Of a stretch of 64,000 nt of DNA, positions 15,160-22,785 are shown one piece after another. The translations under genes were made by a program, and so were the position numbers. The notes beneath the pieces were generated by a model that saw only the letters and a list, made by a program, of their open reading frames with translations, did no database searches and had not been told where the DNA came from. The DNA lies in assembly GCA_025055235.1 (NCBI GenBank), contig JANWYN010000109.1, positions 1-64,000 of the forward strand, in the 5' to 3' direction. Position 1 is the stretch's first letter. Each line of letters opens with the position of its first letter. The DNA is from Candidatus Roseilinea sp. (lineage in GTDB: Bacteria; Chloroflexota; Anaerolineae; J036; Brachytrichaceae).

Positions 15160-16641
15160 TCACCGGCCGTAGGTCGCCGTCATCTTGCGCAGGCGCGCCT
15201 TCGTTTCGCCGGTCAACTGATCCCACGTGAAGCGCCACTGCCAGTTGCCCTCGGCGCGGCCGGGGAAGTTCATGCGCGCTTCGCTGCCTAGACCGAGCAC
15301 GTCTTGCATTGTGATGATTACCGTATCGGCCACGGACATCAGCAGCAGGCGGATCAAATCCCAGGTGATCTGGCTGCCGTCGGTGCCGGTGTAATCCAGC
15401 ACCTGCTGGCGCGTGGTCGGGTCGAGCTTCTCGAACCAGCCGCGCGTGGTGTCGTTGTCGTGCGTGCCGGCGTAGGCCACCGTGTTGCGCACGTAGTTGT
15501 GCGGCAGAAACTCCGACGACGTATCGGCCACGAAGGCGAACTGCAGCACGCGCATGCCGGGGAAGCCGAACGCGTCGCGCAATGCCTTCACCTCCGGCGT
15601 AATGATGCCCAGGTCTTCGGCGATGATGGGCAGGTCACCTAGCACGGCTTTGATCGCCTGGAACAGCGCCTTGCCCGGCCCTTTCACCCAGCGCCCGTTG
15701 ACGGCGGTCGGCTCGCTGGCCGGCACTTCCCAGTATGACTCGAAGCCGCGGAAGTGATCAATCCGGACGAAGTCGAACATGGCGAACGCTGCACGGCAGC
15801 GCTCGATCCACCAGGCGTAGCCCTGCTGCGCCATCACGTCCCAGCGATAGAGCGGGTTGCCCCAGCGCTGGCCGGTCGGGCTGAAGTAGTCGGGCGGCAC
15901 GCCGGCGATCACCTTGGGATTGCCGCGCTGATCCAGGTAGAACAGCTCGCGATGCGACCACACATCGGCGCTGTCGAAGGCGACGAAGATGGGGATGTCG
16001 CCGATGATCTTGACGCCTTTCTCGTTGGCATAGCGCTTGAGGGCCGACCACTGGCGGAAGAATTGGAACTGGTAGTACTTCTGCTTCTGCACAGCGTCGG
16101 CCAGTTGGTTGCGGGAGCGCGCCAGCGCAGTCGGCGTGCGGCGGGCCACGTCGTCCTGCCAGGTGGTCCAGGCGTCGCCGCCGTGCGCGTCCTTCAGCGC
16201 GATGAACAGCGCGTAGTCGTCCAGCCAGCCGGCGTTCGCATCGCAGAACGCCTCGAACGCCGCGTGTTGCTCGGTCGAGGCATATTGCATGAAGTAGATG
16301 TACGAGCGATGCAGGAGGTCGAGCTTGAAGTCAATCACGTCGCCGTATTCCACGCGGTCGGCCGGGAACGCCGGCGCATCCTTCAAATCGTCCCAGGCCA
16401 GCGCGTTCTCGCGCGCCAGGTGTTCCAGGCTGATGAGCAACGGGTTGCCGGCGAATGCAGAGAAGCACTGATAGGGCGAATCGCCGTAGCCGGTCGGGCC
16501 GAGCGGCAGCACCTGCCACAGCTTCTGGCCCATCTCGACCAGCGCATCTACGAAGCGATAGGCGTCGTCGTTGAATTCGCCGATTCCGAAGCGACCCGGC
16601 AACGATGTTGGGTGGAGAAGAATGCCGCTTGCTCTTTCCAT
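15160..16641 (-). CDS. malQ: 4-alpha-glucanotransferase (amylomaltase)
   Basis: 493 residues, the usual bacterial MalQ length. Opens ASGILLHPTSLPGRFGIGEF, then LPLGPTGYGDSPYQ, the nucleophile region FDFVRIDHFRGFESYWEVP, the acid/base region IIAEDLGIITPEV and AYAGTHDNDTTRGWF. Family knowledge: GH77 disproportionation of maltooligosaccharides in glycogen or starch use. It stands alone; no other glycogen gene is near. The upstream stretch is discussed under 16760-16855. Confidence 0.95.
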   Translation of the reverse strand: MERASGILLHPTSLPGRFGIGEFNDDAYRFVDALVEMGQKLWQVLPLGPTGYGDSPYQCFSAFAGNPLLISLEHLARENALAWDDLKDAPAFPADRVEYGDVIDFKLDLLHRSYIYFMQYASTEQHAAFEAFCDANAGWLDDYALFIALKDAHGGDAWTTWQDDVARRTPTALARSRNQLADAVQKQKYYQFQFFRQWSALKRYANEKGVKIIGDIPIFVAFDSADVWSHRELFYLDQRGNPKVIAGVPPDYFSPTGQRWGNPLYRWDVMAQQGYAWWIERCRAAFAMFDFVRIDHFRGFESYWEVPASEPTAVNGRWVKGPGKALFQAIKAVLGDLPIIAEDLGIITPEVKALRDAFGFPGMRVLQFAFVADTSSEFLPHNYVRNTVAYAGTHDNDTTRGWFEKLDPTTRQQVLDYTGTDGSQITWDLIRLLLMSVADTVIITMQDVLGLGSEARMNFPGRAEGNWQWRFTWDQLTGETKARLRKMTATYGR

Positions 16642-16759: not shown

Positions 16760-16855
16760 AACTATGTCTTGGCCATCGCGGTCGTGCCGGACGGCGCGCT
16801 GTGGTTCGGGACTTGGGGCGGCGTGAGCCGGTATCGGGCTAGCGCGAACCCTTGA
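16760..16855 (+). pseudogene. Fragment of a two-component-regulator-type propeller repeat
   Basis: In the 315-bp gap 16642-16956 one frame reads NYVLAIAVVPDGALWFGTWG followed by GVSRYR and a stop at 16853-16855. The D-G-x-L-W-F-G-T-x-x-G-V-x-R-Y pattern is one blade of the Reg_prop beta-propeller family. No start or remaining blades are visible, so it looks like the degraded tail of a lost gene. The rest of the gap holds the hairpin 16882-16914 and the lepB-like promoter. Confidence 0.65.
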
Positions 16856-16881: not shown

Positions 16882-16914
16882 AGCGCCTAACGCGCCCAGA
16901 GCGCGTTAGGCGCT
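16882..16914. repeat. Perfect 14-bp hairpin, CGCCTAACGCG type, copy 1
   Basis: AGCGCCTAACGCGC arm, 5-nt loop, exact reverse-complement arm. A second copy with one changed arm base is at 45429-45460. It could end transcription of the decayed upstream gene, but has no U-tract. Confidence 0.75.
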
Positions 16915-16956: not shown

Positions 16957-17571
16957 GTGCAACTCTCCACCCCGGCGCATGCGGGCGCTGCAGGCAATGG
17001 CGTCACAGCAGCCGCGCCGCGCGGCACACCGCTGTGGCGCAGCCTGCTCGAAATCCTCATCGCCGCCGGCATCGTCGTGTTGCTCTTCGACTTCTTCTTC
17101 GCCTCGGCGGAGGTGAGGGACGAGCGCATGAGCCCGACACTGCGCGCCGGCCAGCGCGTGCTGGTCAGCCGGCTGCCCTACCGGCTGACGGCGCCGCAGC
17201 GCGGCGACGTCGTCGCCGTGCGCAGCCGCATAGACCCTTCGCGCATCGAATTGCACCGGGTGATCGGCCTGCCGGGCGACGCGCTCGACATTCGCGGCGC
17301 GCAGGTGTCGGTGAACGGGCTGCCGCTGCGCGAGCCTTACCTGCTCGAGGGGCGCGAGCGCCTGAACCTCGGCGCGACGACGGTGGGGCGCTACCGCCTA
17401 GGCCAGGATGACTACTTCCTGCTCAACGACAACCGCGCCGACCTCGGCGATAGCCGCTCGTTCGGCGTGTTCTCGCGCGACCAGATCCTGGGTCGCGTCT
17501 GGCTGATCTACTGGCCGCCGCAGAACATCGCCGCCGTCGCCCACACGCAGCCGGCGCGCGGCGAGCCGTAG
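16957..17571 (+). CDS. Signal peptidase I-like membrane protein lacking the catalytic Ser/Lys dyad
   Basis: 204 residues: one transmembrane helix (about 30-50) and an S26 catalytic-domain fold. Conserved boxes are present: box D DNRADLGDSRSFG (159-170) and RVIGLPGD (101-108). The active-site positions differ: box B is R57-M58-S59-P-T-L where S-M-x-P-T-L is expected, so Arg replaces the nucleophile, and the general-base Lys before RVIGLPGD is H100. Family knowledge: SipS/LepB uses Ser-Lys; archaeal and ER enzymes use Ser-His. Here His fits the second type but the Ser is displaced by two residues. It may be a pseudo-enzyme, or use S59. Start GTG 16957 follows a -10 box by 6 nt. Confidence 0.8.
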   Translation: MQLSTPAHAGAAGNGVTAAAPRGTPLWRSLLEILIAAGIVVLLFDFFFASAEVRDERMSPTLRAGQRVLVSRLPYRLTAPQRGDVVAVRSRIDPSRIELHRVIGLPGDALDIRGAQVSVNGLPLREPYLLEGRERLNLGATTVGRYRLGQDDYFLLNDNRADLGDSRSFGVFSRDQILGRVWLIYWPPQNIAAVAHTQPARGEP

Positions 17572-20013: not shown

Positions 20014-20325
20014 TCACGCCGATCGGAACAACCGGCGCCGGGCGTATTCCGCCGCCGCCTCGCGGATGAAGGCCGCCGTCTGCTGTGCGCCGTAGTCGCG
20101 CTCCAGCGCATCGGCGACGGCGAGCAGTTCGGCCTGCGTGGAGCGGCCGGGGCGCAGCGCTTCGTAGATGCGCAGCAGCTCCTCTTTCGGCACGGCGGTC
20201 AGCTCGGCGGCACGGCGCAGGTTCTCGGCCAATTGCGTGAAGCCGGCCGCCTGCGCGGCGTCCGCCTGCCGGCGCAGGGTGTCGGGGGAGACCTGCAAGT
20301 CGTCAATCAATCTTTCGTCTTTCAT
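20014..20325 (-). CDS. pduE: Propanediol/glycerol dehydratase small subunit (PduE-like)
   Basis: 103 residues matching the small subunit of B12-dependent diol dehydratase: SPDTLRRQADAAQAAGFTQL, AENLRRAAELTAVPKEELL, YEALRPGRSTQAELLAVAD and AAFIREAAAEYARR. It is shorter at the N-terminus than typical PduE (~170), as in glycerol dehydratase gamma-like forms. It follows the large-medium fusion by 66 bp. The start codon and first residues (MKDERLIDD) lie inside a 7-bp repeat tract, so the repeat has supplied or replaced the 5' end. Confidence 0.88.
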   Translation of the reverse strand: MKDERLIDDLQVSPDTLRRQADAAQAAGFTQLAENLRRAAELTAVPKEELLRIYEALRPGRSTQAELLAVADALERDYGAQQTAAFIREAAAEYARRRLFRSA

Positions 20326-20391: not shown

Positions 20392-22746
20392 TCACACATC
20401 CGGCTCCCAGTCGAAGAACAGCTCCTGCGGCGGCTTGTCGCACACCTCCTCGGTCTCGCGGCGGTGCAGCAGCGCCGTCTTCACGATCAGCCGCAGGCGC
20501 GCCCAGTTGTCCACCGTCACCGGCACGGGCTTGACCACCTCGCCCTTGGCATACTTCGCCGCGTTGCGCCCAATCTGCTCGAAGGTCTCCAGCGTCAGGC
20601 TGGGCGAGAACGAGAACAGCTCCAGATTGTGCAGCCGGGGCATGCCGCGCTTGTGGATGACCGCCGTGCCGCGGCTCTGCAGGCCGATGCCGATGCCGCT
20701 GCCGCTGTAGCTCGATGCGGTGAAGCCGAGCTGAGCGCAATCGCTGGTGTGGTAGGCCTTGATCAGCCGGGCGACCATGCCCTCCTTTGCCACGCCGGTG
20801 AAGATGGCTTTGAGCACGTCCTCATGATCGAGGCCGTTGATCGTCTTGGTGAGCGCCGTGCCGAAGGCCGGCCCGACGCACACGATCACCTCGTTGAAGC
20901 GACCGGGACGCGCCGGCCCGATCTCGTGCAAGTTTTGCAGCGGCGCGCCCACCCGGTCGGCGATGAAGTCGCGCGGCGAGCGCGCCTGCGGCAGAGCGAT
21001 GATCTCCTGCCAGCGCGCGCCTTGCACGCGGTAGCCGGTGCCCGGCCCGGCGTAGTCGTTGGGATCGGTGAGGGCGCTGAGCACGCGGAAAGAGGGAATC
21101 GGGAGTGGGGAGTCGGGAGTGGGTGGGTGAGCTAGCTCACCGTTTGTGCCAACGGCCACTTCGATTTCTTTTACTCCTTCGTGTGCTTCGCGCGCTTCGT
21201 GGTTCGAAACGAAAATCGCCGCCGGCTGCAGATAGTCGCCCAGCGTGCGCTGGCGCAGCATCTCGGCCAAGTTAGCGGCGATGCGCACGAACCCGCGCCG
21301 ACGCAGCGCGGCGATCACGTCGCGCACATCCTGCGTCCCTTCCAGGAAGCGATCGGCAGCGGCCAGGTCGGCGACGATGTCGCGCGGCGGCATGTCGTCG
21401 CTGCCGTGGGCGACGACGGCGGCTTCCACTTCCTCGTCGCAGATCTCCGGGAAGCCCAGCTCGGCATAGACGGCCTGCACCGCGCGGGCGGCTTCGCGAC
21501 GCACGGCCAGCGCCTCCACCTCGCGCACCGGCCGCAGCCCGCCGTCAATCTGCATGTCGCGCTGCAGCACGTTGTAATCGTCGAAGTCCTCGGCGTCGAA
21601 GTTGCCGCCGCCGAACATGTTGTCGCGGCGCGGCACGGCGCTGTAGCCGCTGAAGATGAAGTCCGTGCCGGGGATGAACTGCAACATCAGCTTGGCGCTC
21701 TTGCGGATGGCGCTGTGGCTGGCCAGCGCGTCGTTGCCGCTGGCGACCTCCAGGCCGAGCATCGCGGCGATGAGGTTCTCGGCCAGCACGGCGCGCACGC
21801 CGCCCGGCAGGCTCTCCGGCAAGGCGATGCACGAGATCGAGCCGTTCTGCACGCCCTGGCTGCCGGCGCCACGCGCCACGCACAGGCAGCGCGCCTCCAG
21901 GTACAGCATGCTCTTGCCTTCGCTGCTGCCCATCAGCGCTTCGCTGCCGGTGCCGCTGGTGAAGCGAATCTTCACGCCGCGCGAGGCGTAGGCGCTGGCG
22001 AGGAACGCTTTGCTCCATGGCGTGTCGTCGCCGTCCACGAAGCTGCGCTCGGTGCCGTACACGCTCAGCGTCTCGGCGTAGCTGGTCAGCCCCTTCATCG
22101 CCAGGCGCAGGCCCATGCTCTCCTCGATGGCGCACTGGGTGAGCACGCCGCCGCGGCCGGTCTGCGAGCCGATCAGCACGCACAGCGCGTTCAGCGGCGC
22201 CATGCGCGCGATGCCGACGGTGGTTTCGATCTCGGCGAAGCCGCGCAGCGCTGCTTCGGCGGCGTCGGCGGCCAGCAGCGCCGGGTTCTCGCGGCGGTTA
22301 GTGACGTGCGCCTGGTTGGCCGGCGTCTTGCGCACGCGCATCTTGGCCAAGCCCATCATCATCTCCAAGACGCTCATGTGCCGCACGATCTCGCACAGCT
22401 TGGCCGGCGTGCAGCCCAGTGCCAGCCGGCGCACTTCGCGCGCAGGCACGTTGATGTCCACCAACATGCGCGCGATGTGCAGCGACGGCATGGCCATGGC
22501 TTCTTCGGCCACGCTCAAGTCGAGGAAGTGATCGGCGATGAAGGTATCGAGCGCGTCGAACTGCGCGCGCGGCTTGCCATCCATCTCTATTACCCTCGTG
22601 TGCGGGGGAGATTCGAGGGTCAACGACGGTTGGGGATCGTTCGGCCCGTCGGCGACGATCAGGCCGGCGTCGGGCCACGCCTCGACGAAGGTTTCCTTAT
22701 TGATATCGCGTTCGGCCAGCAGGGCGAAGCGTTTGGAATGGGTCAT
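20392..22746 (-). CDS. pduCD: B12-dependent diol/glycerol dehydratase, fused large and medium subunits
   Basis: 784 residues from ATG 22746. Residues 1 to ~555 match PduC (SKRFALLAERDINKETFVEAW, PANQAHVTN, GRGGVLTQCAIEES, YGTERSFVDGDDTPWSKAF, EARCLCV, GSISCIALPESLPGG, DAEDFDDYNVLQRDMQIDGG, NDYAGPGTGYR); the rest matches PduD (VCVGPAFGTALTKTINGLDH, LGFTASSYSGSGIGIGLQSR). Family knowledge: adenosylcobalamin radical dehydration of 1,2-diols or glycerol to aldehydes. Subunit fusion occurs in some lineages. A repeat-encoded insert of ~40 residues (21090-21206) splits the PduC C-terminal part just before VLSALTDPNDYAGP. No reactivase (PduGH), aldehyde dehydrogenase or microcompartment shell gene is in the window. 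Confidence 0.9.
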   Translation of the reverse strand: MTHSKRFALLAERDINKETFVEAWPDAGLIVADGPNDPQPSLTLESPPHTRVIEMDGKPRAQFDALDTFIADHFLDLSVAEEAMAMPSLHIARMLVDINVPAREVRRLALGCTPAKLCEIVRHMSVLEMMMGLAKMRVRKTPANQAHVTNRRENPALLAADAAEAALRGFAEIETTVGIARMAPLNALCVLIGSQTGRGGVLTQCAIEESMGLRLAMKGLTSYAETLSVYGTERSFVDGDDTPWSKAFLASAYASRGVKIRFTSGTGSEALMGSSEGKSMLYLEARCLCVARGAGSQGVQNGSISCIALPESLPGGVRAVLAENLIAAMLGLEVASGNDALASHSAIRKSAKLMLQFIPGTDFIFSGYSAVPRRDNMFGGGNFDAEDFDDYNVLQRDMQIDGGLRPVREVEALAVRREAARAVQAVYAELGFPEICDEEVEAAVVAHGSDDMPPRDIVADLAAADRFLEGTQDVRDVIAALRRRGFVRIAANLAEMLRQRTLGDYLQPAAIFVSNHEAREAHEGVKEIEVAVGTNGELAHPPTPDSPLPIPSFRVLSALTDPNDYAGPGTGYRVQGARWQEIIALPQARSPRDFIADRVGAPLQNLHEIGPARPGRFNEVIVCVGPAFGTALTKTINGLDHEDVLKAIFTGVAKEGMVARLIKAYHTSDCAQLGFTASSYSGSGIGIGLQSRGTAVIHKRGMPRLHNLELFSFSPSLTLETFEQIGRNAAKYAKGEVVKPVPVTVDNWARLRLIVKTALLHRRETEEVCDKPPQELFFDWEPDV
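21090..21206. repeat. Composite repeat tract inside the diol dehydratase gene
   Basis: Left part: GGGAGTG/GGGAGTC heptamers. Middle: a GGTGAGCTAGCTCACC palindrome (21125-21140). Right part: a 9-bp CACGAAG-type tract in minus orientation (21163-21206). Together they encode a ~40-residue hydrophilic insert inside the conserved large-subunit sequence. Confidence 0.8.
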
Positions 22747-22785
22747 GGCAAACGTAGTGTACGGGAATTCGGCAAGCCGGGGGCA

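What the first reader, a model, noticed from the sequence alone, without database searches (positions are those of the whole stretch)
16957..17571. Signal peptidase I homologue with Arg in place of the Ser nucleophile and His in place of Lys
Box B reads R57-M-S-P-T-L and the box before RVIGLPGD reads ELH, while box D (DNRADLGDSR) is perfect. Either a pseudo-protease with a regulatory or chaperone role, or a re-wired active site using S59 and H100.
Basis: partly seen in the sequence, partly recalled or inferred. Interest (0 to 1): 0.6.

Follow-up and report, generated by a model that had tools for sequence, protein, structure and literature searches.

The report
Order-wide dead signal peptidase paralogue
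A hot-spring bacterium and nearly all sequenced members of its order carry, beside a normal signal-peptide-cutting enzyme, a second copy whose cutting residues have all been lost while the rest of the protein is kept, so it must do some non-cutting job or be fading slowly.

Summary
Window 16957-17571 (+) encodes a 204-aa membrane-anchored S26 protein in a Candidatus Roseilinea relative (Chloroflexota, Anaerolineae). R57 sits at the catalytic Ser position and H100 at the catalytic Lys position. It is not a base error: all eight other genomes of the genus lack the dyad, and 26 of 28 genomes of the order carry a degenerate copy, nearly all beside an intact Ser/Lys copy. Of 23 positions at least 95% conserved in active enzymes, exactly four are lost in the dead clade: Ser90, Lys145, Gly272, Ser278. 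The S59/H100 re-wired site is rejected: neither residue is conserved. The dead copies form one clade (100/98 support), are under purifying selection (dN/dS about 0.25; active copy about 0.12), and in two genera stand before deoC, as active lepB does in other families. Best reading: a pseudopeptidase of the SpsA/SipA kind with a non-catalytic role at the membrane; partner unknown. In passing: the same order also carries a dead LspA domain fused to a KAP NTPase, beside live lspA.

The parts
16957..17571 (+). S26 (type I signal peptidase) pseudopeptidase gene, GTG start, 204 aa
   Evidence: orthologues in all 8 other genomes of the genus and a degenerate copy in 26 of 28 genomes of the order
17032..17097 (+). 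predicted N-terminal membrane helix, residues 26-47
   Evidence: AlphaFold2 model helix 26-47 and hydrophobic sequence
17125..17127 (+). codon 57, CGC Arg, at the position of the catalytic Ser (E. coli Ser90)
17254..17256 (+). codon 100, CAC His, at the position of the catalytic Lys (E. coli Lys145)
17425..17427 (+). codon 157, AAC Asn, at the position of the invariant Gly272 that makes room for Lys145
   Evidence: role of Gly272 from PMC4049620
17443..17445 (+). codon 163, CTC Leu, at the position of Ser278 that supports Lys145
   Evidence: role of Ser278 from PMC4049620
16945..16950 (+). TACAAT, a -10-like box 6 bases before the GTG start; suggests a leaderless transcript
   Evidence: TACAAT stands 6-7 bases before the start in 8 of 9 genomes of the genus; inference, no transcript data
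15160..16641 (-). malQ (4-alpha-glucanotransferase, GH77), divergent neighbour in 17 genomes of the order; a synteny marker, probably not part of the mechanism

Best explanation
The gene encodes a membrane-anchored type I signal peptidase paralogue that no longer cleaves. An ancestral active lepB, next to deoC, lost its Lys, its Lys-supporting Ser and its Ser nucleophile in the ancestor of this order or soon after, while a second lepB kept the essential cleavage job (supported by sequence, phylogeny and synteny). The protein keeps the membrane helix and the structural core of the S26 fold and is maintained by purifying selection (shown). It most likely works by binding rather than cutting, as an adaptor or scaffold for exported proteins or for the active signal peptidase/Sec machinery on the outer face of the membrane (inferred). 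It probably does not use the classical signal-peptide groove in the classical way, because the groove residues are less conserved than in active enzymes.
For: S26 fold by sequence and, with a moderate model, by structure (best PDB match SpsB 4wvi E 9.2e-10, SipA 4n31 3.1e-7). No Ser/Lys dyad in 26 copies; the intact set S/K/G/S in all 49 canonical copies of the first alignment and in 30 further class-level copies, bar one cut off before the Ser. Exactly the four catalytic-set columns are lost out of 23 conserved ones, hypergeometric P 1.1e-4 (two of the four defined the group). One clade, 100/98, with those columns masked. dN/dS from this genome 0.18-0.36, mostly about 0.25, against 0.07-0.18 for the canonical gene. 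New invariants S71 (24/24) and Q116 (23/24). deoC lies directly downstream of dead copies in six genomes and of active Ser/Lys copies in families f4, f9, f10. A canonical copy is present in the same genome.
Against: No partner, phenotype or expression data. Groove positions are more variable than in active enzymes (1.80 against 1.37 bits, whole domain equal), which weakens a peptide-binding role. Neighbours (malQ, solute-binding protein, amidohydrolase) point to no secretion pathway. Some members (G010, G017) have decayed further and G014 lacks the gene. The structure model is only of moderate confidence (pLDDT 68.8).
Confidence: 0.6

Rival explanations
1. A slowly decaying relic: after the second lepB took over, the first copy lost catalysis and is drifting towards loss with little or no remaining function.
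For: dN/dS is about twice that of the canonical copy. The nucleophile position needs about 14 changes on the tree. Further decay in G010, G017 and g2; absent from G014. G001 and G008 carry a second, broken copy.
Against: Retained as an open frame in 26 of 28 genomes at family-level divergence; dN/dS well under 1; 19 of 23 conserved columns kept; new invariant positions gained.
Confidence: 0.25
2. An active protease with a re-wired site (S59 as nucleophile, H100 as base, or another residue pair).
For: Ser and His are present in this one sequence.
Against: Position 59 is S/T/N and position 100 H/Y/R within the genus; across the order 59 is S/T/A/E/R/N and 100 R/H/Y/L/S/N. S71 is invariant but no Lys or His is invariant in the clade. 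The Ser278 partner is also lost.
Confidence: 0.03
3. A sequencing or assembly error in codons 57 and 100.
For: CGC is one base from AGC (Ser).
Against: Dyad missing in all 9 separately assembled genomes of the genus; CAC is at least two bases from Lys; G157 and S163 changed as well.
Confidence: 0.005
4. A direct regulatory subunit of the canonical LepB (competitive inhibitor or hetero-oligomer); a special case of the best explanation.
For: Same fold and membrane placement; co-occurs with a canonical copy in nearly every adequately complete genome.
Against: No physical linkage of the two genes; nothing tested about contact.
Confidence: 0.12

Closest known systems
Streptococcus pyogenes SipA (LepA), FCT-region pilus assembly factor, PDB 4n31 / 4k8w
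   Same: S26 fold; Ser90 to Asp48, Lys145 to Gly85, Gly272 to Asn140, Ser278 to Arg145, i.e. the same four positions lost, and the same Gly to Asn change as in all nine genomes of this genus (PMC4049620); sequence match E 1.1e-4.
   Different: SipA belongs to a pilus operon with a class B sortase and keeps the peptide groove; here there is no pilus or sortase neighbour and the groove is less conserved.
Staphylococcus aureus SpsA
   Same: Signal peptidase I paralogue lacking both catalytic residues, in a genome with an active SpsB (PMC12445088).
   Different: SpsA adjoins spsB (from memory, not tested); here the dead and active copies lie on different contigs or far apart. SpsA is dispensable; not known here.
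Canonical LepB of the same genome (G000:C11:22455-22994)
   Same: About 39% identical over the domain; same length, helix and boxes.
   Different: Intact Ser/Lys/Gly/Ser set.

Membership tests
Type I signal peptidase, Pfam PF10502 (as a sequence family) | Profile match over most of the domain | tested here: met
   1.8e-35, residues 28-186, model 3-168 of 168
Type I signal peptidase as an enzyme (MEROPS S26) | Ser nucleophile and Lys general base | tested here: not met
   R57 and H100; no dyad in any of 26 copies of the clade
Type I signal peptidase as an enzyme (MEROPS S26) | Lys-supporting Gly272 and Ser278 | tested here: not met
   N157 and L163
Type I signal peptidase as an enzyme (MEROPS S26) | Signal-peptide cleavage activity | not testable with these tools
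   needs a biochemical assay
S26 pseudopeptidase (SpsA/SipA kind) | S26 domain, catalytic residues absent, gene maintained | tested here: met
SipA pilus assembly factor | Location in a sortase/pilin cluster | tested here: not met
   neighbours are malQ, SBP_bac_3, amidohydrolase, diol dehydratase; the genome's two sortases are on other contigs
SipA pilus assembly factor | Conserved peptide-binding groove | tested here: inconclusive
   M58, V53, L62, V68, L99 kept hydrophobic, but groove entropy is higher than in active enzymes

The most novel reading that the evidence does not exclude
This order of Chloroflexota has turned spare copies of both secretory signal peptidases into conserved non-cutting proteins: a stand-alone dead S26 and a dead LspA domain fused to a KAP P-loop NTPase (catalytic Asp to Asn and Asp to His). 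The two could act as signal-peptide or lipoprotein sensors or adaptors at the membrane.
Probability: 0.15. Interest if true: 0.75.

Novelty: new variant of a known kind. Interest (0 to 1): 0.45.

Why it matters
Dead signal peptidase paralogues are known from a few Gram-positive bacteria (SpsA, SipA) and their mode of action is unsolved. Here one is found order-wide in Chloroflexota, with the four catalytic-set residues cleanly lost and nearly everything structural kept, in the chromosomal place of a former active lepB. That gives a well-sampled case of an essential protease turning into a pseudoenzyme, and warns that profile-based annotation calls this gene signal peptidase I.

Tried and rejected
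The S59/H100 active site was rejected by column variability. Sequencing error was rejected by orthologues. A sortase/pilus link was sought: two sortases exist in the genome but lie on other contigs. No functional link to malQ was found; it is a divergent neighbour only, and deoC, not malQ, is the link to active orthologues. Testing whether the dead clade and the deoC-linked active group form one clade: the free tree keeps them apart, the constraint is not rejected (p-AU 0.335), so that link rests on synteny. The AlphaFold2 model was made from only 12 sequences and is weak at the active-site loops, so no geometry was argued from it. No paper on dead S26 in Chloroflexota was found, in an open-access library only.

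Full report
What is there. Window 16957-17571 (+) is a 204-codon gene starting at GTG. The protein has a predicted N-terminal membrane helix (residues 26-47) followed by an S26 domain (PF10502, 1.8e-35; TIGR02227, 9.5e-34). Its nearest solved relatives are signal peptidases I, first an entry (4nv4) named Bacillus anthracis and then S. aureus SpsB; SipA/LepA of S. pyogenes also match. Against these, R57 lies on the Ser nucleophile and H100 on the Lys base. The Gly that leaves room for the Lys (E. coli Gly272) is N157 and the Ser that supports it (Ser278) is L163; the roles of Gly272 and Ser278 are as described in PMC4049620.

Organism and copies. The closest named records are Candidatus Roseilinea and uncultured Anaerolineae/Thermoflexales. 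The genome holds one canonical copy, G000:C11:22455-22994, with LGQSMEPN, LIKRLIGKPGD and GDNRSFSQDSR. In a search of 60 relatives every genome of the genus has one orthologue of the window gene (53-88% identity) plus a canonical copy. The order holds 28 genomes in this collection, all of one family. Of these, 26 have a degenerate copy; G014 has only a canonical one and G023 has none found. The canonical copy was not found in G025, G026 and G027, which are 75-82% complete.

Pattern of loss. At the Ser position the nine genomes of the genus have R (five), G (two), H and N; at the Lys position H (six), Y (two), R (one). Across the order no copy has Lys; four of 26 keep a Ser (G026, G027, G016, G010) without Lys. 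So Lys was probably lost first and the nucleophile drifted afterwards (inference; parsimony needs 14 changes at 57 and 11 at 100). All 49 canonical copies keep S, K, G and S at the four positions. So do 30 further copies from other families of the class, except that one is cut off before the Ser. Of 23 columns at least 95% conserved in active enzymes, four are lost in the dead clade, and they are exactly these four (P 1.1e-4; two of them were used to define the clade; the two most decayed copies were left out of this count). Residues of the fold core, R82, G83, D84, R101, P106, G107, D158, N159, R160, D165, W186, are kept. Two positions became invariant or nearly so in the dead clade only: S71 and Q116.

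Origin. With the four columns masked, the 26 dead copies are one side of a branch with 100/98 support. In six genomes (genera g7, g8) the dead gene is directly followed by deoC. In families f4, f10 and f9 (G030, G036, G035) the gene before deoC is an active Ser/Lys signal peptidase; in G039 and G040 deoC lies about 1 kb away. The dead gene thus stands in the place of an ancestral active lepB. The tree alone neither shows nor rejects that link (p-AU 0.335). malQ lies divergently on the other side in 17 genomes, including all nine of the genus.

Selection. Pairwise Nei-Gojobori dN/dS from this genome is 0.18-0.36 for the dead gene and 0.07-0.18 for the canonical gene. The dead gene is therefore constrained, but less so. 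A contrast is offered by G001 and G008, whose second dead copies are broken into pieces. A TACAAT box stands 6 bases before the GTG, and the same box stands 6-7 bases before the start in 8 of 9 genomes of the genus, which suggests a leaderless transcript (inference).

How it may work. Loss of nucleophile, base and both base-supporting residues should make proteolysis by the S26 mechanism impossible; this is inference from established enzymology, not an assay. S59/H100 are not conserved and cannot be a new site. What is kept is the membrane helix and the fold. The groove positions taken from E. coli LepB (my knowledge of the S1/S3 pockets) are more variable than in active enzymes (1.80 against 1.37 bits, domain average equal). 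So, unlike SipA, the classical groove is not the best-preserved part. I therefore favour an adaptor or scaffold role at the outer face of the membrane, with the partner unknown; a slow relic is the main rival.

Comparison. SipA of S. pyogenes lost the same four positions and shares the Gly to Asn change; it has no detectable peptidase activity but is essential for pilus polymerisation (PMC4049620). SpsA of S. aureus lacks both catalytic residues and is dispensable (PMC12445088). The present gene is the same kind of thing by anatomy, but lies in another phylum, is order-wide, and has no pilus neighbourhood. I found no description of it (open-access library only).

A parallel seen in passing. 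The same genome has a live lspA (L180:808-1386) and, just upstream on the same strand, a 551-aa or longer ORF with a KAP P-loop domain and a C-terminal LspA domain (PF01252, 1.6e-10). In that domain the VTDF and FNxAD motifs, which carry the catalytic Asp pair (my knowledge of LspA), read TMNYL and FNLAH. A match to the domain is found in 25 of 28 genomes of the order. In the 24 aligned copies the second Asp is His in every one and the first is Asn in 20. A class-wide sample of 100 genomes found the fusion only in the family; hits elsewhere cover the LspA part alone.

Noticed in passing
L180:1346-3001 (-) in G000:C147, next to live lspA at L180:808-1386 (-): KAP P-loop NTPase fused to a dead LspA (signal peptidase II) domain; catalytic Asp to Asn (20 of 24) and Asp to His (24 of 24). 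The domain is matched in 25 of 28 genomes of the order, and the fusion was not found in 95 sampled genomes of the class outside the family.
   Followed up: partly
L064 (G008:C2:730132-730514) and L065 (G001:C64:59055-59383): A second, broken copy of the dead S26 gene in two genomes of the genus, about 60% identical to the window protein.
   Followed up: partly
L075-L078, L086, L089, L091, L093-L095: The canonical signal peptidase of part of the order reads IEQxSAxPxx in box B: the usual Met after the catalytic Ser is Ala, and the Gly two residues before the Ser is Gln.
   Followed up: no
window 16883-16913: Perfect 13-bp inverted repeat (GCGCCTAACGCGC, 5-base loop) between malQ and the dead S26 gene; not seen in the same place in the other genomes of the genus.
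   Followed up: no
window 16760-16853 (+): A short reading frame (VVPDGALWFGTWGGVSRYR) that looks like a fragment of a two-component-regulator propeller repeat, upstream of the gene (by eye).
   Followed up: no
window 20395-22761 (-): Large and medium subunits of diol/glycerol dehydratase are fused in one ORF, followed by the small subunit at 20017-20325.
   Followed up: no
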